Source of the DNA: Watersipora subatra
Lineage: Eukaryota; Bryozoa; Gymnolaemata; Cheilostomatida; Watersiporidae
Direction: 5' to 3'
DNA: 64,000 bases
Assembly: GCF_963576615.1 (NCBI RefSeq)
Contig: NC_088711.1
Location: 22,042,182 to 22,106,181, forward strand
The notes beneath the pieces were generated by a model. The model made no database searches and was not told where the DNA came from. It saw only the letters and a list, made by a program, of their open reading frames with translations. The position numbers and the translations under genes were made by a program. Within the stretch, counting starts at the first letter, position 1. Each line of letters opens with the position of its first letter. Shown here piece by piece: positions 31,241 through 59,257 of this stretch.

Positions 31241-31318
31241 GTAATCATTCAAAATTCTACACAAAACATGCTTTGTTTCTTATTATTTTATTTACGTAAC
31301 ACAAGAGTTCTGTTATTG

Positions 31319-31385
31319 CTACTGCTCATTGGTCAGCTTGTGGTGCAGACCTACTGCTCATTGGTCAGCTTGTAATGCAGTCCTA
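31319..31385. repeat. 36-bp tandem duplication
   Basis: CTACTGCTCATTGGTCAGCT with a following TGTGGTGCAGAC-type end is present twice; the second copy ends TGTAATGCAGTC. It lies immediately beyond the 72-bp array. Confidence 0.8.
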
Positions 31386-38527: not shown

Positions 38528-40023
38528 TTACTTGAACCACGCAGATGTTGTAGAATCGGTGGGTTGATGACTGGAGGTGGGGATCTCTTCACACTCTAAC
38601 AAAAAATACAATTTATGGTTATAAACATTCACTTATGAATACATTGAAATAGTTGCATTTAAAAACCTGTGAAAATTTTTTACACTAGAGATTTGTATTG
38701 ATTGATAACTTTATTGATAGAGTTGGTCAATAGAATTTTGTGCAGAACACCTTATAATACTAAAGGAGTACTACTTACCATGTCTTTTAAAAATTCATTT
38801 TTAGCGTGTCAAAATATGTGTGAAAAACGCCACTATTAAATGAGAAACTTGTAACGCAAATGCTGAAAAACAATTGTGGTCGGCTATTGGTCACACAATT
38901 GTCACAGATTATTCTTTTGATCAATAATCTATGACCAACATTTGCTGTTGCTCTCCCAACCACTTCAACCTAAGATAAACTAACGACTAGCAATTATCAC
39001 AAATGCGCTCAACTTGATGGACATGATTTTATAATGTTAATACAATATTAAAGCTTTTCTAATCAGTTTCTCACAGATGTAACATTTGAAAGTTGAAACA
39101 TTTAAACTAACAGAATTTATTTTTATAAACATCTATTAAGTTTTGTAAGGAAGTGTTACTGGTTAGTAACACCTCTTTACATCTGTAAGAAGTAAGTTTA
39201 GTACACAGCGGTGTTAGCTAAACTGACTTCTTTACGTGTCTACTTCAGTGAAATGAGGTTTGAAATTGCACAACTGACGGTTACTGGCAGCATTTATTTT
39301 CCACTCATTCACAATGAGAGAATTTCATTGCTCATTTTCAGTATATAATTGCTCCAAGCCAAACTGTAACTAATAGATAGGGTGGTACCTTGGTAGTCCT
39401 CAAAGAAATCCCTTTGGAATTTTAGGTACTCCATGCTATTCTCACAATCACCTTGTCGTCTTCTAGAATAATCAAGAGAACACAACACTTAGAAACTGAT
39501 TAGCGATTCTATTTTCGTGTGCATGTATATGGTTCTACAGCTTGCAAATAGTCACACCTGATGTAAACAATTGCACACTCGTTGAATATCATGCTAACTA
39601 GTTAACAGGCATCGCATGATCTCAAAGCGTTCTAGCGGGGTAGTCACTTTGTTATTACTAAGGGCAGTACTTTGTATTAACATTTATAACTTACCCAAAC
39701 CTCTTCGGTCTCTTCTGTTTATCATCATCATTGTCATCCCCACTGCCATCATCATCATCATCTTCTTCAGAAGAACTCTTACTGTTGGATTTAGTGTCAC
39801 ACATTTCACTCCACTCGTCATTTAGCTTTTCCTCCAGTTGATCAACATAGCCTTCTCCACAGTTCACAGTTATATTTGCTATTAACTCCTGAATTTCAGC
39901 CTTCATTCTCTGCTCTCCTCTTCTTCCCCCACCTCTTCCTCTTCTGTTCGGCCTAGCCTCAATTCCGCTCTGCACCAGCAGAACACAGGCTACAACGAAA
40001 CTCATCAGAACGACTACCTTCAT
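38528..40023 (-). CDS. Secreted acidic proprotein A, three exons, 156 aa
   Basis: Exons on the minus strand are 40023-39695, 39462-39389 and 38595-38528, with GT-AG introns of 232 and 793 bases in phases 2 and 1. Residues 1-23 form a signal peptide (MKVVVLMSFVVACVLLVQSG then a likely cut after EA). A basic stretch follows (24-39), then an amphipathic helix with YVDQLEEKLNDEWSEM (59-74), an SSSEE motif (83-87) and an Asp-rich run to 101. RPKR at 105-108 fits a furin-type site, one codon before intron 1. The C-terminal 48 residues include YLKFQRDFFEDY. Four cysteines (55, 75, 116, 136) follow the signal peptide, and N50-I-T is a glycosylation sequon. RFGRR at 108-112 also matches an RFamide-type processing signal. 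Paralogues are at 48794-50071 and 57969-59154. I do not recognise the family; a secreted prohormone or a mineral-associated phosphoprotein are both possible. Confidence 0.85.
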
Positions 40024-40070
40024 GTTGAACAGTAGAGTGTAAGTGATGCATATTTTAGCAGCCAGAAGCC

Positions 40071-40098
40071 TTTTATATACAGGCAGTACAATGAGTCA
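40071..40098 (-). promoter_or_regulatory. TATA box and AP-1-like site of gene A
   Basis: TATATAAAA (40079-40071 read on the minus strand) lies about 50 bases before the ATG, and TGAGTCA occurs at 40092-40098. Both are in the same place in the promoter of the paralogue at 57969-59154; a CCAAT string follows near 40116. Confidence 0.6.
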
Positions 40099-40099
40099 C

Positions 40100-41690
40100 A
40101 TAGGGCTGAACAGACCAATAGCATTGCTACTGACTAGAGGTATTCATAGTGATCTTGGTAAGATAAAATTTTCCTTTACAATATTCAATAATCAAGCAAG
40201 AATCATGTGTGTTGAATATCAAAGGTATAGATAGTATGGACACCTCAAAATTATGACAGTTCACTTTAAGATAGAATGACAAAATAAACAAACATCAATT
40301 CTTTGAAACTGTAATAAAATGATTTATATATTTGCTTAGCAAATAAAGGGAGCATTTGGGAAACATCTAAATACTATATTCAAATAACAGTATGTGGTTG
40401 TCTTAAATAATGAGTACTAAACATTTGAACAAAAACTGAATTCTCTCAAGAACACGTTCATGAAAAGAAGTGATTTACAATAAAATGACGAAGACATGCC
40501 AAAATAAGACTTGCATTATCTAGTAGGAAAAGTTGCAGTAAAGAGAACATAACTCCCTAATAGTGTGTTGCTTAGCACTACAGCTCTCCAGCATTTGAGA
40601 TTTCAAAAAACAAAAATGCCAGAGTTCTTTTGGAATTTAATGTTTGTGTTTTATAATTACAAAATTCATGCTCAAAAATATCTTTTTGAAGCGCCCAAAA
40701 TCCTTTTTGTAAATCTGTTACCAGTTCAACTACAACAACTGGTACAGCCACAAGCAATGACTTCTTTCAAATTGAACATAATTTCCTGTAACAGTTCATA
40801 TTTGCATGTAATATCTGTTGTTAGGCTACTACCTTGTTAAACTTATATAAACTGCAACGTATAGAATATTGTGTTATGCACGTTTCATTTTGAACTACAA
40901 TTATAGTGAGAATTTGGCAATCTTCAGAGAAATACTGTTATTGGGTTACAGAGATTTCGCCTACAAGAAGATTTGGTTACAAGAGATTTTGTTTATAAAA
41001 AAGTTCGGCAATGAGAGGTTTTGTCTATGAGTGGTGAGAGGTTATGTCTATTATCCCTGGATAATATGTCTACAATTATGGAGATGTGCCTGATTAATGA
41101 AGAGATAATGGAATAAAACAGTAAGAAATAATGCAACCTGTACATGGTTGCAACGTTGCAATGTACATTCAACCAATGTACATTGGTTGAAAAGTATACT
41201 ACTGATAGATGTAATCTATCAATCAAAACAAAAATCGCGTGAATATAAAAACACACATCATCAATTTACAATCTCCGTCTTTTACTACCCGTTTTACTAC
41301 TATTACTACTAGTGGCTCCTCGGAACGAATAAAAAATACTTGAATGTATGCTCAGGAAATTTTTAAAGTTAAAGTCAAAAGTTATATGACAATGTTTTAT
41401 TAAACGTACAAATGGTACCATTTCAAGATGTACCACTGACATGATGGTGCTAATATGTGATAAATGAAAAAGTTGAATATAATCAGTTTGTACTGGATGT
41501 TTGTATATTTTTGCAGAATAAATCTTAAACTTGTAATATTTCTGCTGATTCAATTGATGAGATGAGAAAATTTCGAGTAGTGAAAATACTACAAGAATGT
41601 ATATTTAGCATCTGAACTGTAGGGAGTGTAAAATTAGCGTAATTTTTTTAAATTATACATCGAAAGACTATGTTAAAACAGTCGACTTAC
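40100..41690. other. Intergenic DNA, AT-rich
   Basis: No exon recognised. A perfect 20-bp palindrome, CAACCAATGTACATTGGTTG, lies near 41170. Frames at 40565-40840 and 41266-41553 have low-complexity composition and no domain. Confidence 0.4.
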
Positions 41691-41823
41691 GAAATATTCA
41701 TATTAAGATTCTCTGCTATGACGCTTTCTCTTCTTGTAGAATCCAATCTATCAATGTATTGCCAGAATTCGGGTAAATAACCATACTGTATAATATATTT
41801 CTTAGCATATCTAAGTGGACATA
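41691..41823 (-). CDS. Metalloproteinase-propeptide-like exon
   Basis: A 133-base segment bounded by ATTGCAG and GTAAGT reads CPLRYAKKYIIQYGYLPEF, then a charged stretch to LNMNIS. The AxKYxxxYGYLP pattern is typical of the first helix of matrix-metalloproteinase (M10A) propeptides. Incoming phase is 1 and outgoing phase 2. A possible preceding piece ends at 42134 (FLPSFCQ then GTAAGT) in compatible phase. I find no catalytic HExxH exon in the window, so this is either an exon of a very spread-out gene, an orphan duplicate, or a small peptide that resembles the propeptide. Confidence 0.42.
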
Positions 41824-43032
41824 CTGCAATAAAATTAATATATTTAAACTATGAGCAGTAGGTGAAAGTTTTTTATATAAATTAATTTATCAGGTTTTGG
41901 ATATTGATGAAACAGTTCTGCAGAATTCAGATGCCAAAACTCCTTTAAATATCACATGTACAGGGCAAACAATTTATCATAATTAACTTTACTTGGCACT
42001 ATATTTAAAAACTACATATATATAAACATATGCATATATGTAAAACACTAGCATATAATTGAGCAAACCATCCTTTTTAAAAAAAATTAGTAGTCAAACA
42101 GCACAACTCATAGCCTAAGAACCAGGACTTACTCTGGCAGAAACTTGGTAAAAAGTGAAGGTCACCTTTAGCCTCCCATCTTTAGCCCTGCTTGCAACAT
42201 ATGTACATACTAGATACCGTATATGCCAAATTTAACATGATCACAAGATTTGTTTTAATAATGATTTGACAACTCCTCAACTCCTCAACGCTGTACTGTT
42301 CAGTTATGATAAGTTATATTGTAATAGCATTTTGGTAAATTTATGATGTAGAGACATTTAAGCGATTTCTTTAAAAATGTATGAATGACAATCTCAACCA
42401 GCTGTAGAGGAGGCTCTATGTAAGAGTGGGACATAATGATAGCCAATAGAAGATAGACAAACATTTCCAAGGTTATGTCACAGTTATATTGGCTGACAAA
42501 TGAGTACCTCTTTTTGTGATAGGTCGCTCATAGTATATAAAAATATTCAACTATCGAAATGTGTCTGTATGTATGAGACTAACAACTTCAATAATACATT
42601 CGCCCATTTCTTTGCTTTATGATTCATTAAAAATATGGTTTTAACTTTAGAAATCAGTTTTCGCTCTGTTTTAAATGAACAGCTCCTAAAGTTACCATAA
42701 TCCCAATAATTTACGGGTAAGGTAGATTTATATTAATATTTATATTTAAGGTAGATTTTTATATTTTGTTTGATGACCATAAAAATAAGAACATTATTCC
42801 GCATCCTCATTACATGAGCAAGTAATGCAATATAATACTTTTTTGGTACTTTTGATTTATGTATTTTATTTCTTAGTTAAACGTGTGTTGGTATGTACCT
42901 GTGTATACATATAAACTTATACCTATACCATATATATACTATATATGCTGCATACTATATATGTATATATACAGTATACATACTTATATATAGCCTACTT
43001 ATATTTTATAGCTGTATTGTACTTTGCTGTAT
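41824..43032. other. Intergenic DNA, AT-rich
   Basis: A (TA)-rich tract at 42900-43000 leads into the palindrome. Nothing else recognised beyond the possible small exon ending at 42134. Confidence 0.4.
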
Positions 43033-43262
43033 TTTTCGTGTTGAAAGGATAACAAGATCTTATCTAAAGATATTTTCTTTACATATACAATATATATACA
43101 CACACATGCAAAACATACATTCATCATGTCATTCCTTATTTCATATATGAAATAAGGAATGACAGGATGAATGTATGTTTTGCATGTGTGTGTATATGTA
43201 TTGTATATGTAAAGAAAATATCTTCAGATAAGATCTTGTTATCCTTTCAACACGAAAAATAT
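43033..43262. repeat. Near-perfect inverted repeat, arms about 110 bp
   Basis: The arms 43033-43144 and 43147-43262 are reverse complements with roughly four differences and almost no spacer; the centre is TTTCATATATGAAA. Both strands therefore show the same short reading frame, which is a by-product. Transcription would give a long hairpin. An unresolved sequencing or assembly fold-back is the main alternative. Confidence 0.9.
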
Positions 43263-43279
43263 ACCTTACAGAGTTAAAG

Positions 43280-43400
43280 TAGGCGTAATATTTTAGATCG
43301 TAGGCATAGTTTCTCAGCTTGTAGGCGTAATCTCCTGGAGTCAAAATTACTTGTAGACGTCATCTATTGTAGGCGAAGTCACTTGCAGGTGTAATCACTG
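43280..43400. repeat. Degenerate GTAGGCGTAAT repeats
   Basis: About six imperfect copies of GTAGGCGTAATCT-like sequence, spaced 18-22 bases, directly follow the palindrome. Confidence 0.6.
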
Positions 43401-46400
43401 GATCCTCTGTTACCTGGTTTGTTTCGCGATTGAATACTTTTTGCATTTATTACCAACATCCCTTGTCGCGGGGTCTCTCATTTATTTGCATCATTTCCCC
43501 TCTCACACCCTCTTATTTTGAAGTCAAACTTAACTATTAGTTTTTAGTAAGTTTGAAACGCAAGACTTTAAATTTGCAATAAATTGAGCTTCAACAACAT
43601 CTGTAAGTATAATTCGAACTACAGGTTACATAACTTCTAGAATCTGTCATTCTCTCTTTTTCCTCAACATCTCAGCATCATTTTTGACAATATCTTTATG
43701 ATAAAGTAATAGATAGCATTATAAAGCTGCCCATAACTGTTTCTTACACCCAAACCTTTACTACCTTCAATAGAAATAAATACTTATCAACATTCTTCTG
43801 TAACACATCCATTCTTTAGAACTTCAGATTATGAGGAAAACTAGGTTTTTGTTGTTGAAAATGCCATAAAGTGAATAAAAAAAGTGTGTTTCTCTTTTTA
43901 ACCTGTCGTCTATAACATTTATGTTAACTTATTTAAGGAATTTATTTTAACGTTCCTTTTGTGTAAATCATTTCATCTTATTTACAAACTATATAAATCC
44001 TTTAATTTACCAATTATCCAGTTTCCTTTATCTAACAAAATCTATACTTTTGTAAATTTTCTCCTTACATGACCGTTTTTTACTAGCCTAGTATGTTTCC
44101 TTTTAATTTAATTTAATTTAATTATGTAACGTTTTAACTTACCTAACAGCCTTTGGGGGTTTATTTATTATTTAACTTTCTTTGATTTACCAATTGCAAT
44201 AATATACTATGTAATTTATTCTAATTTATCAAATATAAAAAAAATTTTAATATACTTTTACATAACTGTTTTGACTTGTCTGTAATAAAATTTCTTTCAA
44301 CTTTAATTCTTATAAAATGGCTTATTATGTTGATCCTATTGGATCACATCATTTGCTTCAAAATTTTTACAAATTGTCTTCTTCTACACTTTTTGTTATG
44401 ATATGCACACGTATTAGCTTTTCTTTGTGTGGAAAAAAGCCTAAATAGTGAAAAGTACTAAGCGCTCTTCTACATATATTATATGTAATTTAGTCTAGGC
44501 ACTATGCATGTCAAGGTTATAGCTCAGTATTGAGGCAGCGAAGAAAATGGTGGTAGATGTGAACTCACTATGCGACTGCCAGTTAGGGAAAATATAGTGA
44601 GCATCTAATGCTGTCAGCTTGGTGGATGGGAGGCTTCCTAAAGAGTATGAGTGTTATTTCTGCAGGAAGTGAATGCATGAAGGCTAGATAGTAGAGCTAT
44701 GGAGAGAGGCCAGGGAGAGAAAGAAGTTTCACCGAACTGGCTTGAAGTTATTATTTGATCTTTAGAACAGTCATATAAGTTTTATAATACTCTTTGAATA
44801 TTGGTAATGTTTTACATAAGTAGCTTATACTACAACTCGCCCATCAAAAATAAGGATACTCTGATGATAATAAATGCTACCCGAGTTATTCTCTCTTGAC
44901 AGCTTGGGGTAAACAAGGAAAGTCATGCAATAAAGTCTATAAATGTATTGGACTTATAATTCAAGATGAGACAATTCTCATCAACGTTGTAATCTTATAC
45001 AATCTACAATCTGTATAAGATATGTATGGCGTATGACGAATAAGCAGACGTATGTCAGCAGTATGTATGTACCAGTTCAACATTAAATGACTTATGCCTG
45101 AAGAAATCCTTTTCAACTGCATAAATTATTATTATATTTGTATATTTTGAACTAAAGTACTATAGCAGTGATTGAATAATGAAGAGTCTGATGAGATTTC
45201 ACTAACTTGAAAAACTTATAGTTTCTTCAAAATTCTCAACGACCATGTTGCCAAAATAAAGTATTTCAACTGATGATGCATCTGCTATTGAGTTTTTGAT
45301 TGGATGAGTTCTGCGCTAAATGGTTGCTCTGTTCTTGTTAACATTATAATGCAGTTTTGATTTTCCCACGGCCAAACACGAGAGAAGTGAATGTTTGGTT
45401 GTTCTGTTCCTGTTAATATTCTGTTGCAGTTTTAATTTTTAATTCAGAATAATCATTCTCATTCTGCATCTTCCCAGCACACTGACACAGAATAAACACA
45501 CAATGCAAAAGTTCTTGTTTTAAGTACGGGAAAGTATGTGTTGAGTGTAAGTGAGAGTGTGTTGAGTGAGAGAGTGTTGAGAGTATGATATGATCGTTTT
45601 ATTAGAAATTACTTTTGGAATCATATGAAGCACTTCATTACGTTTCATGCAATCATAAAATATAATACAGACATATATGGATAAATTAACAGAGTCAGGG
45701 TAGGGCAGAAAAACAAAAGTCTTTGTTATAATCGTCTTGTCACCTGTTAGATAATATGGTTATCAATTTGACCGAATCATCACCAATGACTAGGAGGGCC
45801 AACAACTACAGTGTTCTAATTTTGGCTATTTACACAATAATAGACATAGAAACTGTTTTGACTAAGCATGGTTGAGACCTTTGCAATAGAGTGATCTTTA
45901 TTTCAGCTTCTTTGTACTTTCTTTTAGCTAGTTTTCTCTACTGCCAGTTGGTTAGTCTTGAGTCAGTCAATAACTTCAATGTTGTTCAAGTGCACATACG
46001 AGACTTGACAAGAATAGCTTACAAATGTATGGGCGGACTCTTTTAGCATCACAGAATGGTTCACTCATTCAACAATATTAATACTTTTAAAATTTTGTAT
46101 GAATCCTAGTTATAATAATGATTAAACGGGCACCATTTAGTATTCTTGACGATATGTAACAACCGATATGTCATTTGAATACTATCTATAAGCTAACTGA
46201 CAAGGAAATTTTTAAAAAAGTTGCTTTATGAAAAAATGGCAAGTTGAACTTAGAAATTCATAGACATGTTTCTAACTTGAAGCTGCCGGTACATGACGTA
46301 AATATTCTCAGTCAGCATTAAAACTCTACAGATTCTGTAATTATTAATACAAAATTATTTCAATAATATTAGTTTTGTAGACTTCATAATTCCAGCTTAA

Positions 46401-48130
46401 ATGAGTAGATCTTCTCTGAAACTTCATTTCAAAGTCTTTCCAGCACTTTCTGCCGAAATAAAGGTAAGGAAACTATCAGATAAAAGCTCACAACTGTGGT
46501 GACACGCGCCTGTGCAATATATTCATTTGGTGAGCAAGTACCTGCTCTATTATTGTAACGAGATGGCAAAAACCTGTCCTATCCACTCTGCCACTGTGTA
46601 ATCAACTCCTTCCGGAGAGTTCCATCACTATCAGCTAAAATTGTTTTTTTACTAAGACTTGCAGCTAGCAGTCATAAATTCATGAATGTGGCAACCATAT
46701 AATGTAGCATATGAACTTTGGAAACTCGAGTGCAAAGGTTTAAATTCATTGATGACTTATAATAAAGTCTCCTGAAAAATGACTCATGATAACTTGTGAC
46801 ATCTGACAGTAACATGTACAACGGCCCTTCCTAAAGAAGCTTCTTACCCTCAGACTATCGGGATAAGATTTCTATCTGACCGTTGATATTTCACGGTCAA
46901 TTTTACAGTTAATATATTATATTAGATTTTAATAGATTCAATTTTGAGAAAATGAGTTGAAAGGTTTCTTTGGGCTGTCAGCATTTATTCTTTTTTGTTA
47001 AAACAGTCTAATAGCATAATGAGACCAATTTGTAACTTAATGACAAATAAAGTTTATATTAAAAAGAGTTGGTGAAATGGTCTGTTGCTGAGAAACTTCC
47101 TCATTTGATGACCACATAGTTGGCTAGTAATGCTAGTAGAGCATAAAAGAGATAGTCTGAGGTAATCATGCTTGTCACATGCTTACCCGCTGTGATATCA
47201 AGGAACAACCTCTCATGCATTTATCATCAAATCTTAGTACAAACTGTTTTTTTACAATTGATGATATTCATACCATGAGCACCTCCCTGACCACAGATAT
47301 AATAGTCTCATCACCTATACTTATAACATACCAGCATCTCTTCATCCATATATATCTGCTGAAACCTCTCACCAACACCTAACAAAGACATTTAACACAA
47401 ATTGGTAACTGTCACCAAAACACATCTTGTGTATGTTATCTGACGATATGACCTATGACCTATGACCTGCTTTATTTATTTTTACTTCATCTACAACTGC
47501 TGAGGCTATTAGATTTGCATTTGTAATAATTTAATATGATTCTCAGGCTAACAAGAAGCTGAATGTGCTTTGGAAGATAATGAGCCCAATCAGTAAATGT
47601 CACTTTTATAACAAACATGCAAGAAATAAAAGTTTGCCACCTAATTTTGTATTATAGTTTTATATTATTTATTTCAATAAATTGTTACATTAAAATGTAG
47701 GAGCTGTTGGTATGCTTATCTCAATAAATAGTTGCAAAGGAAAGCTATAATGTATGTGATCATTTCAACACTAACGTATGGAAGGGAAGTGTGTTATATT
47801 AGTTGATACTAAATATGACAAGGTCGTTATTATAAATATCTTGCATCTTTCAGCGTTTTTGTATAATATATAAAGATATATTACACATTATATGTAACGA
47901 ATAATATATCAAGGCGCTATATTATAGTGACTTGTTCCACCTTGACCTAGAGTATGACTATAGTATAGCAGTGTTCTAGATAGAAAAGAACTACATGCAA
48001 TTATTGTACACTTCCTCAAATTTATTTCAACATTTCACAGTTATTGTTCTTATTGAATGTTTTCCCTCTTTATTTATTTAATGAGAAACTACTGAGTAAA
48101 TCGTAAACTGCAATTGTTAATTCTCTTCTT
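43401..48130. other. Long intergenic stretch, no gene recognised
   Basis: AT-rich sequence. At 45321-45440 a block of about 44 bases (TGGTTGCTCTGTTCTTGTTA type) is duplicated around a CCCACGGCCAAACACGAGAG string, the same terminus as the composite palindrome at 54209-56425. No coding exon stands out. Confidence 0.4.
45321..45440. repeat. Solitary foldback terminus inside a 44-bp direct duplication
   Basis: CCCACGGCCAAACACGAGAG at 45367-45386 matches the A terminus at 54213 with one or two changes. It is flanked by two diverged direct copies of a 44-base block. Confidence 0.55.
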
Positions 48131-48296
48131 TGTATTTAGACCCATGCTATCATACCTAAAGCTGGACTTGAAACGTGAGTTAGATCAGTATTTAGGTCTT
48201 GGAGAGGTTGTCTTCAAACTCAGCAGATTGAATTCTACCAACAAGGCTGGTGGTACATGTGGACGTACCGCCAGATGTTTTAGTAGTTATTTCTAA
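48131..48296 (+). CDS. Possible terminal exon on the plus strand
   Basis: After a pyrimidine-rich acceptor (CTTCTTTGTATTTAG at 48126-48140) the frame reads PMLSYLKLDLKRELDQYLGL and ends GGTCGRTARCFSSYF before TAA. The SYLKLDLKREL stretch is faintly like the YLKFRRDFFE block of the nearby acidic proproteins, but the strand is opposite. No upstream exon found; weak. Confidence 0.25.
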
Positions 48297-48793
48297 CTCT
48301 CCTTGAGCTTCTCATTAGATTAACTGTAACGCTGTTCTTATACTGGATTTATAGATTAACCAAACAGTAAGCAGTTTGGTTTATCGTGAAAGGTGAACTG
48401 TCTGTCTCTCTTGGAGTTATCTGTCTCTTGTTTAGAGATCATATAGTATAAGAACCATTCTACAGGTACCATGTTGCAATTCAAAAACAACAAGATGTGT
48501 AATATGCTTCAAATTTTGCTATTGATTATGATTTTAAAATATAATATGTACTTATAAATTTTAATATAAGAATAAACTTTTATAATATGAATGAGCTGTA
48601 TTTTCAGTTTACAATCTGACATACTTGTTGCAGAACAGAATGATTGAGACTTTGATAAATAATATACCATACATTAGCGGGTTACTATGAGAGCAGTATG
48701 TGGAAACCTAGATATTAGTCTAGCCTTAGGATAACTGCACATAACTCTTCGTGAATAGCCTTCAGCGTTAGTTCTACCGATACAGCTGGAGAA

Positions 48794-50071
48794 CTAATCC
48801 AATGCATCAAATGTTGTGGGCTCATCTGTACTCTCTTCCATATCGAATGGGGTAGTTTCGTCTTCTGGTTCTAAAATAAAACAAATGGTTTCTCAAAAAA
48901 TATTATAAAGGATACAATATGGAACACAGTCTATGTACTAAAATACTGCATAGAAGATACAATTTGATACGCAAAGTTTGCAAACAGCCAGATACATTAA
49001 ACATCTGTTCATAAGTGCATTAGAGTGATTACACACCAAATAAAGAACAAAATCTTTGCTATAAAATTGATAATTCCATTTTATTTGTTTTTTTTCCATT
49101 TATTTTAATCAACGATAGTAATTAAACAAAAGAAAAAATGCTGGAAAAGTGATAAAACCCATAATATGCGTTAGCATAGCTAGTCATGGCGTCAGGCTTG
49201 TTGTCAGCATAATCAAGATCAATTTTTATGAGTAATTAGGTTTTATTCGCTTCCTTTTTAGACATTTATATGCCATTTTTTGAACTATTTACAATTTTAT
49301 TTCCCCTACTGTTAAATTATGCTACAACTCAATGTACCAGTCAGCGAGCATGAAACTTGGTAAAACTTACATGTAAGGTAAACATGAAATTTCCACGTTT
49401 AAAAGGTTTTTACTAGAATAGCTAATCTTGTAAGAAGTAGCTTTGTTAGAGTTCATTGTAAAGTGGATTGTAAAAGCTACAGCTGAGATTTGTTACCTTT
49501 GTAGGAGCTTTTAGTCTCTCTGCTGAACATCGAGCTCTTCTGGTTCTGTTTTCCTTCACCGCTATTTCTGTAATAATCAGAATACACAAAATACTGACAA
49601 AAATATTTTATTTAGTTGAAGTTAGAGCGATGACTGTAAAAAAGCATAAGCTAATATTCTCTCTTTTATCAGCGTGACAATGATCTCTTCAATCTATTTT
49701 TTGCAAGAGTTAACAATTATTTTTCGTACGTACTCAGATCTCTTTTCTCTCTCTAAATTTTCCTCTTCGTTCTCTCCCCCAATGACCTCTTCAGATGAAC
49801 TCTCATCAAGTTCCTTCGGTTCTTTTGACATGTCATCATACCAAGCGACATCGATGTCTTCCTTCACCTCATCCACATACTTATCGGCACAACCCATAGT
49901 GAAATCACTCGACGAGTCCCCGACACTGCCTTTCTCTTTCTCACTTTCTCCACTATTTGCGCAGCCTCTGGTCTGGTCCTTCTTACTCTCTCCTATCGGA
50001 CTAGCATTGACTGCACTCTGCCACAACAGAGCACATGCTACAGATAGACCCAGTAATAGTATAACCTTCAT
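48794..50071 (-). CDS. Secreted acidic proprotein B, three exons, 161 aa
   Basis: Exons on the minus strand are 50071-49734, 49567-49497 and 48870-48794, introns 166 and 626 bases, phases 2 and 1 as in its paralogues. A signal peptide (residues 1-23, MKVILLLGLSVACALLWQSA) is followed by a Ser/Lys/Glu-rich stretch, then KYVDEVKEDIDVAWYDDM (64-81), which aligns with the YVDQL helix of the other two, then ESSSEEV and a Glu-rich run. REKR (108-111) stands immediately before intron 1. The 50-residue C-terminal part is Ser/Lys-rich in exon 2 and Glu/Asp/Thr-rich in exon 3 (ending TFDALD). Cysteines at 37 and 61 only. It is the most diverged of the three: the YLKF-RDFFE block is not conserved here. 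Unspliced reading gives a short alternative tail that I consider intronic. Confidence 0.82.
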
Positions 50072-50118
50072 GATTTGCGACTGGAGTGTTAGTGATGCGC
50101 ACCCTTATAGCTCTAAGC

Positions 50119-50162
50119 TTTTATATACTGCTAGCTTTATGAATCATTTAATTCAGACCAAT
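50119..50162 (-). promoter_or_regulatory. TATA box and CCAAT string of gene B
   Basis: TATATAAAA (50127-50119 on the minus strand) is about 50 bases upstream of the ATG. A plus-strand CCAAT lies at 50158-50162. The AP-1-like heptamer of the paralogues is degenerate here (TGAATCA). Confidence 0.55.
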
Positions 50163-51989
50163 GGCTGGGGAATGTAATGGTGTACAGTCAAATCTCAACT
50201 TGGCATTTTTTGAAAATGAAAAAATACTGCATCTTGACCAATCGGACATTGAGATAAACATTGATTTCTGATGTCTACACTGTACTCACCGGAGTGGATC
50301 AAAGAGTGCCAGACTAAATGTACTTTGCACTAAATGTAAATGCACTAAACGCTTTGCAGGTGGTTTCCAGGTGAGAACAAAGGTAATGCTAATTTTTTCT
50401 TCTTCGAGATTGAAACTCAGGGAATGCATCGTTGTACCGAAAGTTGTTATTCAGACAACTTCAGCGGTATTATTATAGAATTTTGGGAACATTGCCGTAA
50501 AATTTTAATTTAATACTTAAATATCGGCACTTGTGGGTCATGATAAAAAAATCAATTAGTACTGGATGATAGAGAGAAAAGAGAAACCACACAGCTGAGA
50601 CCCACATATTGAAGCAAGCAGAGATTGATCAGAAAAAGGAAATAGGTGGAGCCACAAGCACTGTTAGTGGATGCTAAGAAGAAGGTAGCCATGAAAGAAT
50701 TTTATAACAATACAATTTATATTATTGTATAATTTACAATTTTTTCAATTTTTAATATATAATTTTGTTCAAAAGTTTGAATATGAAGATTTTTGCAATT
50801 ATTTTATTTTAATAGCTTGTATGTAATGCACACTTCACGGGCTTTAAAAATAATTACTTTTAAAACAGTAAAGAGTTTTGGTGCTTATGTTAGGCAACTT
50901 GGTTTTTTTGCAGGCGTTATCCCAACAGGAATGTTCATGAACCATTAGAATGGTGACATATGTTGCATTGCCTTTTACACGGTGTATATATAAAAAATAA
51001 AATGACTTTAAAAATTAACATAGTACAAGTTTACGTATCTGAAAGGCTATTGTAGATAATAAACAGTTCAAGATCTCGGTTGTTAGCTCTTCTCACTCCA
51101 CAACACCTTCTCTCCAGTTAACCGACACCCAGAGAAATGGTCAAACTCTAATTTCAATCTGCGTGTGGGTTTTTATTACCCTGAATGGTTGTAGATTTAA
51201 TAACATAATAATTGTGGCTGACTGCATATTCAAGCACCCAATCCGACAAGGATCGAACTTGAGGCCCACGAATGTATAAACTTTTTCTTGCTCAAGAGCA
51301 AGGGTTCTCTAATAAGGATGCTGAGTTTATAAAGTTTGACACGTAAAGAGATTTCTATGTAAAGAAATTTAATGTAGAAAAACTTTGCAACCTAAAAATA
51401 AGCTTGAAATGTCGATTTGCGATAGGAACTTCTACAGAAATGTGTATATTTAAGTTGAACAGGTCAGTGAACTTGAAACAGCTATGTGAAAGGTATTAAG
51501 TCAAGGAGTATTTTTGAATGTTCTTGAATAAACACATGCTAAAGTGATATGTGACTGCAACTTAGTAAAACAGTGGTTATTACCTTTTCTCCACAATGCG
51601 TAAAGCATGTCTCATTACACCAAATAATTGGTAATTTTTCCTCAAAGATTCTTCATAAAGTTTTTTTGTTGTGCGACTGTCTTTTCTCACCCATGAGATG
51701 ATGACAAAGTCGTCAAGGCTTTGTCATCATTTAACACCCAAAAACTGTGTCACTTTCTGGTTGTTAATTCGAATCAACCTACTTTTGCTATTTCTCCCAC
51801 AGTGAGTAAAACCATAAAATAGTACATGTGTAAGTTCAAAGGGGAGTTTTTAAATATCATTATAGTTTTGATATTATTTTCAGCAGCATCATAAGTGGTT
51901 CAACAAGAGGCCCTGTTACAAATGTCATTATTATATATATTATTTATATTATATATTATATATATTATTATATAACACCAATATTTACA
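50163..51989. other. Intergenic DNA with a tRNA-like relic
   Basis: At 51240-51275, minus strand, AAGTTCGATCCT matches a Pol III B box, probably a SINE fragment. A 13-bp hairpin (GATGATGACAAAG and complement) sits at 51698-51731, and a TA-rich tract at 51930-51975. No gene recognised. Confidence 0.4.
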
Positions 51990-52235
51990 ATAACAAGAGT
52001 CGTGTCCCCTCGTCTGTCCAGATGGATTGGGCAGATGCTTATTATCCACGACAATCTCTCTGGCGCACGAGACTGCCAGTGTATTGGTTATGTACATTCG
52101 AATCACTTAAATACGGAGCAAAATTTACTGTAATAATAGCCGGGTTTGTCATTTCATCCGTTTGTCCGATACCCATGTTGGAGTTTGGGAAAAAATATCA
52201 CATCGTACAAGAATCAAACCCACAATTTTTGGCAT
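51990..52235 (-). mobile_element. tRNA-derived SINE, second copy
   Basis: Minus strand begins with a tRNA-like head (B-box-like GGGTTTGATTC near 52207) and ends with GACGAGGGGACACGACTCTT, matching the tail of the element at 28083-28225. The middle differs in length between the two. Confidence 0.5.
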
Positions 52236-53084
52236 GGTGTAGCATCTCTTTGACAACTGTTCCAATCTTCCACTGTCTAGTACTCCTCAGTAATTGTCTG
52301 TACAGTTATTGCGCCTGATGATCTCTCTGAGTACTAGTAATTATAAAATGTGTAATAATTGGGGAGTTCAAGGCCTTCTTGTATCTACATAATTTAACTT
52401 CTTTATACAAGCAAATGCTAATCGGAATAGACAAGTAAGTGTAACCTCAGTAAGATATTTGATCATTTTGTTACGCAAATATTAACTTAACTCACATATT
52501 AAAAACCTATAAAAAAACTATTACCAAACTTGGCTTGGTATATGATGTTTTTTTCTATTTATACTTGCTGGCTATTCAGTTACAGAGACAGGTAGGTGAA
52601 GTACTTTGAGTACTTCGGATAGTCAGGTCTCTCAGCTATGAGCTCATGAGTTGCCAACCCTGAATAGGAGCTATACCTTCACAGGTCTATTAAAGTGTGC
52701 TTCACAGATGGTTCAGGAAGAACCCTCGGCCTTAAGGTTTTATACTCTTGGGCTATCATAATAACAGTTTTGCCAAACGAGCCAAATAGACTTATAATTG
52801 CTAAATTTTCATGGATAGTATCCGAGATTGATTTTTAATAGGTTCAACTTGTGATGCTAGCTTTAGCGGAGGGCATAAGGTATCTATAAAGAATGCATCG
52901 AAGATGGAGACTGAGGAATCGTCATATATTATTATATATGAAATCATACATGATGATATATAGCATGATGATATATAGCATAACTTAATAACATATATCT
53001 CATAATATTGACATATTAGGAGATTATATGTTATTAAAGCACATCAATTACGTAAGTACTGTTTCAGCTTATTCAGGTTCTTCA

Positions 53085-53416
53085 ATATCTTGGCTTTCAA
53101 ATGAGCCATTGTTTGACATGGTGAGACAGACATTGGTTGGTGTTTATAGGATTTCCTCAGAGCTCTACCGCAGAAATGTTCAATGGTAAAGGCTCGAAAA
53201 TTGTGACGTCACAATTTTCATATTCGTTGTTGTGTGCTCTTACCGCACATTTTGGGAACCGCAACCAAGTGTTCTTTTATTGCAGGACGTAATTTTGACA
53301 CCCTGTTTTTCATAGTTCTATTATTCTTTGTGTATTGAATATAGGCTCATCCAAAATCCAAGACTCTGATGTATTGAAATATATGATAAAAAAATTATGT
53401 AAATAATGTGCTTCAA
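53085..53416. mobile_element. Internally deleted copy of MITE family 2
   Basis: The left 150 bases match 15042-15190 and the right 170 match 15760-15925, both at about 90 per cent, while some 570 interior bases present in the long copy are missing. The outermost left terminal repeat is lost or diverged. Confidence 0.85.
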
Positions 53417-53528
53417 GTAGGAAAAAAGTATCTTAAATGATTTTTCCGTTTTCTCTGTCAGCGCCTAAGGCTGTTACAATAAACACCTGTTCTCAGCAAT
53501 TTAAATAGTTCTGATACTGAATCGAATA

Positions 53529-53664
<136 letters not shown>

Positions 53665-54208
53665 TATACAACAAACTACAAGAGAGAGTCTGCAGGACCT
53701 TCCTAACAAGTCTGCTTATTTCTTTATAATAAGCAGCGTTTGCAAGCTCAAACAGTCAAAAGGTTGTATATATAGAAGACTAGAAATATCTGGTCAGTTA
53801 TTGTCTACTACCAACTGTTCACACAAAATGAACAAACAGCGTAAATTTGTGCAAGCATAAAAGGATACAAAGAAATATCGTAAAAATAGTGGAACATCAT
53901 TGTCTAGTCTAACCAGGTTTAGACTGGACCTACAACTTTGGTTGAAAAGTAGAGTATGCTAAAGGGAAGCAAAAAAACTACTGCTGAAGAGCTGATGGGC
54001 CAGAGAAAAAAACTCTGCTGTGAAACTAGATAAAACTGACTAGATTATGGAATTAGTCAGTACTGCCTGGACTGTGAAACTGAACAGATGTGATCTGATC
54101 ATGACACTCACATCTAAGCCTATGAGATGAATAAAACATGGTGCTCATGGCTATATTCTCATGCTCTTAAGAATAATCTGTACATCAATTGCTAGGATGG
54201 CAATTTGT

Positions 54209-56425
54209 TATCCCACGACCAAACACGAGCGAAGCGATTATTTGGGAGCTTTATGATAAATGCATATGTGCGCACAACTGACGAAAATTATTCATCAACA
54301 ATGTTGCCAACCCTTGTACCGAAATCTCATCAACAAATTTAACCATTTTCCAATAGAGTCGTTTAAGTATAATAACAATACAAAACACATATAAACCTAT
54401 TTAAATATGTTACCAAGTCTTTGAAATTTGTAAACAATATCCTAAACCTTACCCATCTGATAGGATTATACATAAATAGACAGATTAATTTGGCCGAAAA
54501 TCGTTATTAAAATTTGACAAGCCTTATTTTTAACAAAATTAAGACCGGCCAACGAAACGCCGGGCGACAGAGTATAGAACCATTAAGTCGTGCGCATTTA
54601 ACAAAAGAAATGTGCCCATTTCACCAGTCTATGGCATTGTACAGTTGTCGAAGGTTTCTGTAATTAACATAGAAGTACTGAAAAGTAATCATTTCTTTTT
54701 TGCCGATTTCAAAGTAACTGACATTTTGGACACTTAGGAGTACTTTGGTACTCCAACTGATGTCCAAAGCAGTGAAAGTAAAGGAAATGACAATGATATT
54801 TTTTGTAACGATTCTTATGAGATTATTACAATATTTAATTATAAGAACTAAAGATTCCACTGTCATACAGCCCACGACCAAAGAGATATTGGAAAAAAGA
54901 AAGGGTACTGATGATTGAGAAATGCAATATTAGCAGTCAAATGGCACTGCAGGGCAATAGGATAACTGCAATGGTAGCTGTAATGTACTGGGTGTGGATG
55001 TTATTATATACAACAAACAGCAATAATGAAAGGAAAAGATTATATGTTTATATCTCTCCCCCTGCAATAGGAGAAATGCAATATTAACCAATATTGGAAG
55101 TAAAGTGCACGGATATTATTAGAATAACCAATATTATTAATATAGTAATAATATGAAACCAATGCACAATTTTGTTTACATTTCAAAACGTCATAGCTAG
55201 CAATATCAAGAAGTTGTGATATTTATATAGATTTTAAAAAAATTCTGTACTACGTAGTCATTGTTCTGTAGTCATCCAAACTTATAATTAAATATGGTAA
55301 TAATCTCATAAGAATCGTTAGGAAAAAATATCATCGTCATTTCCTTTACTTACACTGCGTTGGACATCAGTTAGAATACCAAAGTACTCAAAAGTATCTA
55401 AAATGTCAGTTACTTTGAAATCGGCAAAAATGAAACGATTTCAGTACTCCTACGTTAATTACAGAAACCTTCGGCAATTCGACAATGCTATAGACTGGTA
55501 AAATGTGCACGTTATTTTTTCGTGAAATGCGCACGACTTAATCGTTCTATTATATGTCGCTCGGCGTTTCAATTTCCGGTCTTAACTTTGATAAAAGTAA
55601 GGCTTAGCAAGTTTTAATAACGATTTTCGGCCAAATAAATCTGTCTATTTGTGTATAATCTGTTCAGATGGGTAAGTTATAAAATACTGTCGACACTTTT
55701 CAAAGACTTGGTAATATATTTGAATAGGTTTATATGTGTTTTGTATCGTTATTATACTTAAACGACTCTACAAAACGATAGTTAAATTTGTTGATGAGAT
55801 TTTGAAACAAGGGTTTGTGACGATGTTAATGAACAATTTTCGTAAATTGTGTGCACATGAACTTATCATAAAAACTCTTAAACTTCGCTCCGCTCATTTG
55901 GTCGTGGGATAGTTATTCAATTTTATAAGATTTAATTATAAGAATAAGCATTCGAATTTACAAGATCGAAGTATATAGTGACCGATGTTAGGCAATATAT
56001 TACTGTTATTATTTTTTTAAATAGTTTTGTTAAATAGATTTTCTAAAAATCTATATAAATATCACAACTTCTTGATATTGTTAGCTATGATGTTTTGAAA
56101 TGCAAACAAAATTGTGCATTGGTTTTCTATTATTACTGTATTATTATATTAATAATATTAGCTATTCTATTAATATCAGTCCATTTTATTTCTAATATTG
56201 CATTTCTCTTATTGCGGGGGAGAGATATAAACATATAATCTTTTCCTTTCATTATTGCTGTTTGTTGTACATAATAACACTTACACCCAGTACATTACAG
56301 CTACCATTGCAGTTATCCTATTGCACTGCACTGCCATTTGACCGCTAATATTGCATTTCTCAACCATCAGTACCCTTTCTTTTTTCCAATATCACTTTGG
56401 TCGTGGGCTGTATGACAGGGGAATT
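54209..56425. mobile_element. Composite foldback element, A-B-A'-B' order
   Basis: Arm A (54209-54855) is inverted at 55262-55916 (A'), and arm B (54856-55245) is inverted at about 56030-56425 (B'), each pair roughly 80-90 per cent alike. All four outer ends carry the same 12-mer CCCACGACCAAA: forward at 54213 and 54869, reverse at 55912 and 56408. No transposase frame is present. The order is not that of a single inverted repeat, which would be A-B-B'-A', so two overlapping foldback units or a rearranged dimer are implied. Confidence 0.75.
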
Positions 56426-56562
56426 TCTAGAAGACTCAGTGGGCCTGCATGGCTTAAAACTTCCAACTCCTTCTGATAATTATTGCCAAGAAATATTTCC
56501 ACTTCTCTAACATTTCCTTCATCAAACTGAGAATCACTAGGTTATCTTTGTATTTGTTAGCC

Positions 56563-56628
56563 AGCAGCGTTACATGAGTTATCCGCTCCCTTATCAGCAG
56601 CGTTACATGAGTTATCCGCTCCCTTATT
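56563..56628. repeat. 33-bp perfect tandem duplication
   Basis: AGCAGCGTTACATGAGTTAT followed by CCGCTCCCTTATC occurs twice in tandem. Confidence 0.9.
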
Positions 56629-56809
56629 TCATGGAATCATAAATTGCAGCTTGAGCACGACTATGAACATCTCACCATAAGTTACTTACTGTTTATAATT
56701 TTAAAGATTCTATGCGAAAACTGATAATCATGTTTATATATTATACAAAGCCCATTGAGATTTGAAATAGTCAGATGTAGAAATAAATGGACAAACTAAA
56801 ATGATAGAT

Positions 56810-57059
56810 AAGCTGGATAGATGGATATATGAACAAACAAACAGACGAACAGACAGATGAGCAGAAAGATGGACTGACAAATTGATGAATAGATGGATAA
56901 TGGACAGACACATGAATGAATGAATGAATGAATGAATGGGCGGACGAATGGACAGGCGGATCAACAGAAAGACAAACAGACTGGCAGAATGAAGAAAAGC
57001 TGAGAAACAAACAGATATACCGACAAATAAACATACCGGCAGACATAGGCCTACTGGCA
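56810..57059. repeat. GACA/GATG-rich simple-repeat region with (GAAT)n
   Basis: Degenerate tetranucleotide sequence (ACAGACGAACAGACAG type) with an uninterrupted ATGAATGAATGAATGAATG run at 56911-56938. The long Ser/Ile/His/Cys frames on the minus strand are products of this composition. Confidence 0.85.
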
Positions 57060-57325
57060 TACAATACAGTTAGACTGGCATTCAATAGTTAGACTGGCAT
57101 ATAATACAGTTAGACTGGCATATAATACAGTTAGACTGGCATATAATACAGTTAGACTGGCATATAATACAGTTAGACTGGCATATAATACAGTTAGACT
57201 GGCATATAATACAGTTAGACTGGCATATAATACAGTTAGACTGGCATATAATACAGTTAGACTAGCATATAATACAGTTAGACTGGCATATAATACAGTT
57301 AGACTGGCATTCAATACAGTTAGAC
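57060..57325. repeat. 21-bp satellite, about 12 copies
   Basis: ACTGGCATATAATACAGTTAG repeats almost without change, indicating recent expansion. The period of 21 gives a 7-residue LTVLYAS frame on the minus strand that is not a gene. Confidence 0.97.
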
Positions 57326-57805
57326 ATTCATGCAGACCGGCAGACCATTAAACAAAGAGATAACTGGAAAGGCTACTCACAGTCTTATTTCATCATTAAC
57401 GACAATAACATTATGAAAAGTGGAGCCATTTCGTATTTTCAGAAATTTATATGACTTCTGAATTTTAAGCGCCGGCCCATCAGCAGGCTTTTATTATGGT
57501 GTTTTATGTACTTCATTCAACTGTTCTACCGATTATAAACTATTATTTTAGGCCTTCAAGAATTGCCAGAAGGAAGAGTTGAGCTGAAGTCCATTGGAAA
57601 TTTAAGGTGTTCCTTATTTATCAACTCATCATGTTCTTGTGTTTTCGCAGTATTGTGGTAGCTTTTCAAACCTACACAGATTTGTTTCTTTCGTGCGGGC
57701 AGATTTTACTAGAGAATAGCTGGCCAGATATGTGTAGTATGTTATTATATACAACCGTATGACTGCTTGAGCTTTCGACACAAAAGATTTTATACGTTAG
57801 TTGAT

Positions 57806-57811
57806 TTTATT
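57806..57811 (-). terminator. Poly(A) signal of gene C
   Basis: AATAAA on the minus strand, about 160 bases beyond the stop codon at 57969-57971. Confidence 0.5.
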
Positions 57812-57968
57812 TTAAATGATTAAGAATAATAACATAAGCATTTACATGAAAACAATGAGCTTCTAGCATTTCTGTACATTATAGAATTATAAAAAATGCA
57901 AAATAAGTCAAAAGAATGAAATACTGTTACTGGCAAACAAACTTGAATATAAAAACTCTTGACTTTCA

Positions 57969-59154
57969 TTAGCTCTCTGAGGTGGTAGCATCTGTGTAAT
58001 CCATTTCTGTTGTGGACTCTGGGCAGTCTAAAACATACACTATTCCGTAAAATGTACTTCAGATTAGGCAATTCGTTCTGGCAACTATTAGCTTGAAGTG
58101 TTTCACCATTTGTGAATTCCTTCATAAGGATGCTAACAAACTGAATTTAGCTAACAGTTATAATTTCAGATAACAAACTCACCAAGAAATATATTATTCA
58201 TCTTCGGTCGCATAACCATCAAACTACCTTTCATCCAGTATTTTTAACATTTAAATGCATTTGCATTGAATTTAGTGTAATTGGGGGTTTTTGATACAAT
58301 CATAGAGAGCTAACAATTAAATACCAAAACAGAAAAACAGTGATGTATGTAACATAAACAGTTCTTTTATACATGCAGATCCTTTAGTTACATGTAACAA
58401 AAATGGCATGCATAACTAATATCAGTTAGCTCATAGGCAGATCATACCTCGGTTTTCTTCAAAGAAATCTCTTCGGAATTTTAGATACGATACGCTTCTT
58501 TTGGCATTATCCCCTTGTCCTTTTCTATAACAGCACATAGCAGCAATATAGCTGACTAACACTTCTTGTATATAATGCAAAAATCTCTGACATATGATTA
58601 TGTATCAACTTTGTTAGCTGCCAGATAGCTTTTAGCAATTTCAAAGGTTTGCAGTCATATCTCCAGAAGCAACATGTTTTCAGCCTTCCCATTGTAACCA
58701 TAAATTTGGAATTATAAAAACTATTTAGCAGTGAGCACTGTTGAAATTTATTTTTACCAAGCTTAATAATATATGCTAGGATGTCTCACCCAGATCTTTT
58801 CTTTCTCTTTACTTCCTTCTCCACCTCACCACTACCACTATCACTATCACTCTCATCGTCCTCATCGTCCTCATCATCCTCATCGTCCTCATCGTCCTCT
58901 TCAGAAGAGCTCTTACTGCTCTCCTTGGATTTACTGTCAGACATCTCATCCCACTCATCATCTAGGTCTTCCATCAGTTGATCAACATAGTCTTCTCCAC
59001 AGTCTGCGGTTATATCTGTAATTAACTCATCAATCTCAGCCTGCAGTTCCAGCTTTTCTCTTTTTCTCCCTCCACCTATCGCTCTAGCCTCAACTCCATT
59101 CTGCACCAGCAGAACACAGGCTACAGTGAGACTCATCAGAATGACTACCTTCAT
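57969..59154 (-). CDS. Secreted acidic proprotein C, three exons, 166 aa
   Basis: Exons on the minus strand are 59154-58790, 58524-58448 and 58027-57969, introns 265 and 420 bases, phases 2 and 1. A signal peptide (MKVVILMSLTVACVLLVQNG, cut likely after residue 23) leads into AIGGGRKREK, then the helix YVDQLMEDLDDEWDEM (56-71), a KSSSEED motif (81-87) and an Asp/Glu run to about 101 built from GAC/GAT codon repeats. RKKR (117-120) stands two codons before intron 1. The C-terminal 46 residues include VSYLKFRRDFFEENR, nearly the same as YLKFQRDFFEDYQ in gene A, and an acidic Thr/Ser-rich end. Cysteines at 52 and 149. Several Ser-x-Glu sites would suit secretory-pathway (Fam20C-type) phosphorylation. 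Closest to gene A, including its promoter, so those two are the younger duplication. Confidence 0.85.
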
Positions 59155-59201
59155 GTTGAACAGTGGAGTGTAAGTGATGCGTATTCTAGCAGCCAGAGGT
59201 C

Positions 59202-59257
59202 TTTTATATACAGACAGTACAATGAGTCACATAAAGCTGATCAGAGTGATGACGTCA
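59202..59257 (-). promoter_or_regulatory. Promoter of gene C: TATA, AP-1-like and CRE sites
   Basis: TATATAAAA at 59210-59202 on the minus strand, TGAGTCA at 59223-59229 and a perfect CRE palindrome TGACGTCA at 59250-59257. The first two are in the same register in gene A; the CRE is unique to this copy. Confidence 0.6.

What the first reader, a model, noticed from the sequence alone, without database searches (positions are those of the whole stretch)
38528..59154. A local family of three secreted acidic proproteins with a strictly conserved exon plan
Three minus-strand genes (38528-40023, 48794-50071, 57969-59154) share a signal peptide, a YVD-x(8-10)-W helix, an SSSEE motif leading into an acidic run, an R-x-K-R site within one or two codons of intron 1, introns in phases 2 and 1, and a 46-50-residue C-terminal peptide. 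The splice sites were read by eye and all nine exons join in frame to a stop. I cannot place the family. The pattern fits a rapidly evolving secreted proprotein cluster, for example peptide precursors or acidic matrix proteins.
Basis: partly seen in the sequence, partly recalled or inferred. Interest (0 to 1): 0.88.

Follow-up and report, generated by a model that had tools for sequence, protein, structure and literature searches.

The report
Casein-like acidic secreted bryozoan proteins
A stretch of DNA most likely from the encrusting bryozoan Watersipora subatra carries three related genes for acidic proteins, two of them not found in the protein collection searched here, that are predicted to be secreted, cut in two and phosphorylated at a motif also found in milk caseins, and that probably bind calcium, perhaps in the animal's calcified walls.

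Summary
Gene A (40023-38528, minus) translates to 156 aa identical to a database protein of the bryozoan Watersipora subatra. A fourth paralog (146 aa) is listed from a contig of the same length and is not in the window. Genes B and C share A's plan (three exons, phases 2 and 1) but were not found in the protein collection. Exon 1 homology is clear; B's exons 2-3 are only moderately supported. I add: (1) a promoter with fixed spacing in all three genes (TGA[C/T]TCA at -75, TATATAAAAG at -56, GCATCACT at -26/-27); (2) C-x3-YVD-x9-W in all four members; (3) SSSEE, the calcium-binding motif of milk caseins, as the longest invariant run after the signal peptide; (4) even cysteine numbers after the signal peptide, split across the RxKR site 1+1 in two members, 2+2 in A, 2+0 in B. 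Best reading: furin-processed, phosphorylated, calcium-binding acidic matrix precursors whose two chains would stay disulphide-linked in three members. Function is inferred and untested. 'Acidic matrix protein' is favoured over 'peptide precursor' because the C-terminal parts are net negative, not amphipathic and not repeated. The window's own genome could not be searched.

The parts
39695..40023 (-). Gene A exon 1: signal peptide, prodomain, SSSEE + acidic run, RPKR; intron 1 phase 2
   Evidence: identical to database protein P0001
39389..39462 (-). Gene A exon 2 (core YLKFQRDFFED); intron 2 phase 1
38528..38595 (-). Gene A exon 3 to stop
49734..50071 (-). Gene B exon 1: signal peptide, prodomain with 2 Cys, SSSEE, REKR; phase 2
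   Evidence: 0 of 2000 shuffles reach its prodomain scores with A, C and P0002; not found in the protein collection
49497..49567 (-). Gene B exon 2, predicted; phase 1
   Evidence: moderate support
48794..48870 (-). Gene B exon 3, predicted, to stop; acceptors at 48864 and 48861 also stay open
   Evidence: moderate support
58790..59154 (-). Gene C exon 1: signal peptide, prodomain, SSSEE + long acidic run, RKKR; phase 2
   Evidence: not found in the protein collection (as part of profiles)
58448..58524 (-). Gene C exon 2 (core YLKFRRDFFEE); phase 1
57969..58027 (-). Gene C exon 3 to stop; acceptors at 58018 and 58039 also stay open
40024..40098 (-). Gene A promoter: TGACTCA at -75, TATATAAAAG at -56, GCATCACT at -26 from the ATG
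50072..50146 (-). Gene B promoter: TGATTCA at -75, TATATAAAAG at -56, GCATCACT at -27
59155..59229 (-). Gene C promoter: TGACTCA at -75, TATATAAAAG at -56, GCATCACT at -26

Best explanation
These are three members of a Watersipora gene family of at least four that encode small acidic preproproteins, predicted to be secreted, probably phosphorylated at an invariant casein-type SSSEE cluster and probably cut once by a furin-like protease at RxKR, and they likely act as calcium-binding matrix proteins of the calcified body wall. The shared promoter plan would switch the genes on together in one secretory cell type. In the Golgi a FAM20C-type kinase would phosphorylate the Ser-Ser-Ser-Glu-Glu cluster (S-x-E sites) next to the Asp/Glu run, making a dense calcium-binding site. 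A furin-like convertase would cut at R-x-K-R, separating an acidic N-terminal chain from a 44-50-residue C-terminal chain. In A, C and the fourth paralog a conserved cysteine in the prodomain and one in the C-terminal chain would keep the two chains disulphide-linked; in B the C-terminal cysteine is absent and a second cysteine sits in the N-terminal chain, so its C-terminal chain would be freed. Shown: gene structures (B's 3' exons with moderate support), promoter, motifs, cysteine pattern, no relative found in the searched collections. Inferred: secretion, phosphorylation, cleavage, disulphides, calcium binding, site of use.
For: Species and splicing of A: (156 of 156). SSSEE is invariant in 4 of 4 members and is the longest invariant run outside the signal peptide (5 columns; 246 of 20000 shuffles of column order reach that), with synonymous codon differences between A, B and C. 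SSSEE is described as a conserved calcium-binding motif of caseins, alongside their signal peptides (PMC10004547, passages). FAM20C targets S-x-E, and its knock-down gives abnormal stacking of crystals on nacre tablets in a pearl oyster (PMC5824888, passages including the abstract). In the Lottia shell matrix 16 of 46 phosphosites fit S-x-E or related motifs, and matrix proteins with pI below 4.5 are described as a class (PMC4094399, passages). N-terminal chain pI 4.61, 4.21, 4.05, 4.35 for A, B, C, P0002 before any phosphate. Cysteines before+after the RxKR site, signal peptide excluded: A 2+2, B 2+0, C 1+1, P0002 1+1. Shared promoter with fixed spacing. Cheilostomes make mineralised skeletons with intra-mineral organic matter (PMC11358562, passages).
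Against: No expression, proteomic or biochemical datum ties these proteins to the skeleton. I did not check that W. [quoted passage not shown] Phosphoserine adhesive proteins are linked to the same kinase family (PMC12621633). Even cysteine counts in four members could be chance (1 in 16 for parity alone). In A the acidic run is diluted by Gly, Ser and Asn; B has only scattered Glu. A's N-chain pI (4.61) is above 4.5. Other basic pairs in A's Arg-rich N-terminus could be cut too. The structure model is poor (mean pLDDT 47.3). Caseins also conserve Pro/Gln residues and hydrophobic C-termini, which this family does not show.
Confidence: 0.4

Rival explanations
1. Phosphoserine-bearing adhesive or mucus proteins (larval attachment glue or colony-edge cement): acidic phosphorylated chains would complex with calcium and basic proteins.
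For: Phosphoserine is a main modified amino acid of tubeworm cement, and FAM20C kinases are expressed in its cement cells (PMC12621633, passages including the abstract). A, C and P0002 are charge-patterned: basic, Gly-rich N-terminus, acidic middle.
Against: Only one SSSEE cluster per protein and no poly-Ser blocks. A paper search on bryozoan larval glue found 13 papers and listed 10; none of the listed titles or abstract openings names a bryozoan glue protein (papers not read).
Confidence: 0.17
2. Defence peptide precursors: the acidic proregion neutralises a C-terminal peptide released by furin; conserved promoter and signal with a divergent C-terminus would reflect host-pathogen evolution.
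For: A-C identity is highest just upstream of the ATG and in the signal peptide (0.91, 0.90), and dN rises from signal (0.126) to C-terminal part (0.412). The first 25 residues of the C-terminal part are net +2 in B, C and P0002. Acidic proregions are common in antimicrobial peptide precursors (recalled).
Against: The C-terminal parts are net negative in 4 of 4, and A's first 25 residues are net -2. The predicted helix is not amphipathic: 928, 974, 3831 and 2819 of 5000 shuffles reach its moment in A, B, C and P0002. A-C dN/dS is below 1 overall (0.267/0.551) and in the C-terminal part (0.412/0.852).
Confidence: 0.17
3. Peptide hormone or neuropeptide precursors that release one C-terminal peptide with core YLxFxRDxxE.
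For: The core YL-x-F-x-RD is kept in A, C and P0002; a single conserved RxKR site precedes it.
Against: No repeated peptides and no plausible amidation site by eye; core not kept in B. The Bugula neritina neuropeptide survey (PMC4990251, passages only) names insulin-like, pedal/orcokinin-like, FDSIG-like and vasopressin-like types; I saw none resembling this family, but its tables were not compared by sequence.
Confidence: 0.12
4. Not a functional family: decayed or spurious gene models.
For: B and C were not found in the protein collection; B's 3' exons are weakly supported; splice signals of B and C fail a strict filter and C's rank 185th of 314 under a loose one.
Against: All three reading frames are intact with in-frame junctions; A is an annotated protein; exon 2 is more alike than introns and 3' flank between A and C (exon 2 0.66 against shuffled 0.48; introns 0.50 and 0.51 against 0.44 and 0.45; 3' flank 0.42 against 0.46; exon 3 gives no DNA signal, 0.59 against 0.57).
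Confidence: 0.06

Closest known systems
Milk caseins / secretory calcium-binding phosphoproteins (vertebrates)
   Same: Small secreted proteins; conservation includes the signal peptide and SSSEE, the rest divergent; clustered genes (clustering of caseins/SCPPs recalled).
   Different: No detectable homology; introns in phases 2 and 1, whereas SCPP introns are phase 0 (recalled); no Pro/Gln-rich hydrophobic C-terminus; RxKR site and cysteine pattern as described here; seen only in this bryozoan.
Unusually acidic molluscan shell matrix proteins (for example scallop cfMSP-1, Lottia CCD1)
   Same: Very acidic, with possible (cfMSP-1) or measured (CCD1) phosphorylation.
   Different: No such protein among the hits; presence in a mineral not shown here; no two-chain proprotein in the passages read.
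Tubeworm cement phosphoproteins
   Same: Secreted, serine-phosphorylated, linked to FAM20C kinases.
   Different: Those are described as polyphosphorylated; here one SSSEE cluster.
Insulin-type two-chain hormones
   Same: Chains cut apart at basic sites and held by disulphides (recalled).
   Different: Two to four cysteines here, not the six of insulin (recalled).

Membership tests
Caseins / SCPP | Signal peptide plus SSSEE / S-x-E cluster | tested here: met
   SSSEE in 4 of 4 members; hydrophobic N-terminal signal judged by eye
Caseins / SCPP | Detectable homology to SCPP members | tested here: not met
   Only W. subatra hits, none in 33; no Pfam model at cut-off
Caseins / SCPP | Phase-0 introns (recalled) | tested here: not met
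   Phases 2 and 1 in 3 of 3 genes
Acidic skeletal matrix phosphoproteins (functional class) | pI below about 4.5 | tested here: inconclusive
   N-terminal chain pI 4.21, 4.05, 4.35 in B, C, P0002 but 4.61 in A, so 3 of 4
Acidic skeletal matrix phosphoproteins (functional class) | Occluded in mineral, phosphorylated | not testable with these tools
   needs a skeletal proteome
Antimicrobial peptide precursor | Cationic amphipathic mature peptide | tested here: not met
   net charge -5, -9, -3, -2; no amphipathic moment
Neuropeptide precursor | Repeated or amidated peptides between dibasic sites | tested here: not met
   one conserved RxKR site, no repeats, no plausible amidation site, by eye
Insulin superfamily | Six-cysteine A/B chain pattern (recalled) | tested here: not met
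   4, 2, 2, 2 cysteines in A, B, C, P0002

The most novel reading that the evidence does not exclude
A bryozoan-specific, independently evolved counterpart of the vertebrate casein/SCPP cluster: tandem genes under one promoter plan that make furin-cut, disulphide-linked two-chain phosphoproteins for calcium handling in skeleton building, and so candidate skeletal matrix genes for a phylum thought to have evolved mineralisation secondarily.
Probability: 0.3. Interest if true: 0.7.

Novelty: new variant of a known kind. Interest (0 to 1): 0.45.

Why it matters
[quoted passage not shown] a block of four of ten mollusc/brachiopod shell genes was not retrieved from bryozoans and phoronids (PMC9484238, passages including the abstract). 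If these proteins sit in the wall, they would be concrete lineage-specific candidates for how it was regained, with a casein-type calcium motif reached independently. My paper listings showed no bryozoan skeletal protein sequences (25 of 206 papers listed; 12 of 66); one passage cites a 2023 study by Lombardi and others of bulk intra-mineral organic matter in three Antarctic bryozoans (PMC11358562), which I did not see. Even without a skeletal role, two genes not found in the protein collection and a shared promoter give a marker set for one secretory cell type.

Tried and rejected
Searches that led nowhere: Rfam on the window, 0 hits. Pfam on exon 1 of A, B and C and on P0001, P0002 and spliced C and B (36 listed weak matches, none at cut-off). 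PDB by sequence: 7 matches, best E 0.042 (methionine aminopeptidase 2, over the acidic stretch), one match, E 3.4; rejected as compositional or chance. Viral and prokaryote contigs: 20 and 32 pattern matches, none a relative. ColabFold on P0001 with four rows, of which B and C were exon 1 only: mean pLDDT 47.3, helices 3-22, 35-54, 56-81, 119-133; too poor for a fold search, so none was run. Protein collection: 2 hits each (7988 and 7987 candidates scored, those sharing most words) and 0 of 67 candidates. C was searched only inside profiles, B also alone. Distant relatives that share few 5-residue words would be missed, and I did not check which other bryozoans the collection holds. Paper searches (0 papers; 2; 8 of 626 listed) gave nothing used. 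One search (a look at 44500-44600) gave nothing used.

Rejected readings: antimicrobial, neuropeptide and insulin-type (see membership table). Promoter caution: the patterns were drawn from these genes, and single motifs are near chance at 3 mismatches (3 matches, all exact, 0.81 expected, 4 of 100 shuffles reach 3; 10 matches, 4.49 expected, 0 of 100 reach 10; 2 exact matches, 0.78 expected, 19 of 100 reach 2). The argument rests on their fixed spacing from three ATGs. TGACTCA or TGAGTCA occurs 14 times in the window strings. Poly-A signals: no AATAAA or ATTAAA within 1200 bases after A's stop, first ones at 228 (B) and 157 (C).
Full report
What is there. Gene A translates to 156 residues identical to a database protein named 'uncharacterized protein [Watersipora subatra]' from a contig of 67,125,504 bases. 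The genome note lists chromosome 4 at 67.13 Mb (PMC12902671, named sections), so the window is most likely from that chromosome. W. subatra is a cheilostome bryozoan. The second hit, P0002 (146 residues, 'isoform X2', three member sequences), is a fourth paralog listed with a contig of the same length; tblastn of P0002 against the window finds A, B and C as its only strong matches, so its gene lies outside the window.

Gene structures. I re-derived all nine exons. A agrees with the annotated protein. C is secure by homology: its tail scores with A and P0002 are reached by 0 of 2000 shuffles, and its path is the best of 314 open paths by similarity to the family, although its splice signals are weak (185th of 314). 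For B, exon 1 is clear (0 of 2000 shuffles reach its prodomain scores with A, C and P0002), but exons 2 and 3 are only moderately supported: 35 of 5000 shuffles reach the joint tail score, and the path ranks 4th of 193 on both criteria. Under a strict splice filter no path is open in B or C, while A's is 2nd of 42. B and C were not found in the collection of 5.8 billion proteins (C only as part of profiles).

Family signature. In four members: a hydrophobic N-terminus read by eye as a signal peptide ending at an Ala, C-x3-YVD-x9-W, SSSEE, an acidic stretch, R-x-K-R, a 44-50-residue tail. After the signal peptide the longest invariant run in the four-way alignment is SSSEE (23 invariant of 130 columns, X columns left out; 246 of 20000 shuffles of column order reach a run of 5), and A, B and C spell it with different codons (AGT/AGC, TCT/TCA, GAA/GAG). 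The acidic part itself varies in length and make-up. Cysteines after the signal peptide are even in number in each of the four: A 2 before and 2 after RxKR, B 2 and 0, C 1 and 1, P0002 1 and 1. The prodomain Cys of the C-x3-YVD motif is in all four; the Cys near the exon 2/3 boundary is in A, C and P0002. B lacks that one and has an extra Cys upstream in the prodomain. This is the basis for proposing a disulphide-linked two-chain product in three members and a freed C-terminal chain in B. It is an inference from pattern only; parity alone has a chance of 1 in 16.

Promoter and divergence. All three genes carry TGA[C/T]TCA at -75, TATATAAAAG at -56 and GCATCACT at -26 or -27 from the ATG. Between A and C, identity is 0.43 and 0.33 in the two stretches upstream of -112, 0.78 from -112 to -57, 0.91 from -57 to the ATG, 0.90 in the signal peptide, then 0.63, 0.83 and 0.67 along the rest of exon 1; introns and 3' flank are near the shuffled level, and exon 3 shows no DNA-level signal (0.59 against 0.57). 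A-C dN and dS are 0.267 and 0.551 overall, 0.225 and 0.416 in the prodomain, 0.412 and 0.852 in the tail (Nei-Gojobori). In the signal peptide dN (0.126) exceeds dS (0.060), on 23 codons, and dS of the acidic run could not be computed, so segment values are rough. The low synonymous change at the 5' end means either nucleotide-level constraint or gene conversion there; I cannot tell which. A-B and B-C are near saturation (dS 1.373 and 1.598).

What it probably does. SSSEE is described as a conserved calcium-binding motif of caseins, which conserve mainly the signal peptide, SSSEE, Pro/Gln residues and a hydrophobic C-terminus (PMC10004547, passages); this family shares the first two only. SSSEE presents S-x-E sites, the FAM20C consensus; FAM20C affects shell formation in a pearl oyster (PMC5824888, passages), and S-x-E-type sites make up 16 of 46 in a limpet shell matrix, though the same passage calls conservation of the recognition site in invertebrates unknown (PMC4094399). 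N-terminal chains have pI 4.05-4.61 before phosphate. Cheilostomes build a calcified skeleton containing organic matter (PMC11358562, passages). I therefore favour calcium-binding matrix precursors (0.40) over adhesive (0.17), defence peptide (0.17), hormone (0.12) and decayed models (0.06). Against the defence and hormone readings: C-terminal parts net negative in 4 of 4, predicted C-terminal helix not amphipathic, no repeated peptides. For the defence reading: the first 25 residues of that part are net +2 in B, C and P0002. The second prodomain helix is amphipathic in C and P0002 (0 and 5 of 5000 shuffles), less so in A (248) and not in B (955); the first is not in A, C or P0002 (802, 2639, 2173). 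The helix limits come from a poor AlphaFold2 model (mean pLDDT 47.3).

Novelty. No relative outside W. subatra was seen, with the limits stated under Tried and rejected. The family is an orphan in those collections; as a kind of thing it is a new variant of lineage-specific acidic secreted phosphoproteins. It is not a casein or SCPP by descent. Further copies in the same genome could not be sought because the genome search did not complete.

Noticed in passing
28652-31243: 36 copies of a 72-bp tandem repeat (93% matches). As 72 is divisible by 3, it leaves an 890-residue open frame (28703-31375, +) of a repeating hydrophobic 24-mer, probably not a gene.
   Followed up: no
37263-38126: About 30 copies of a 29-bp minisatellite end roughly 400 bases downstream of gene A; a 21-bp x 13 array (57053-57325) lies roughly 640 bases downstream of gene C.
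   Followed up: no
33180-35481 (-): Retroelement-like pair of frames: reverse transcriptase (RVT_1, E 3.8e-25) and a zf-RVT match just above cut-off. A second RVT_1 piece is at 5073-5576 (-).
   Followed up: partly
18735-19376 (-): 213-residue open frame with ankyrin-repeat matches (Ank_3 and Ank above cut-off); likely an exon of a normal gene.
   Followed up: partly
54209-54500 and 55624-55911: Two inverted copies, 82% identical over about 290 bases, between genes B and C (the first is cut by the edge of the stretch compared); a smaller inverted pair lies at 53744-53836 and 57681-57774. Possibly dispersed repeats.
   Followed up: no
59085-59154 and 39955-40023: Signal-peptide codons of A and C show dS 0.06 against 0.42 and 0.85 further on: possible gene conversion or nucleotide-level constraint at the 5' end.
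   Followed up: partly
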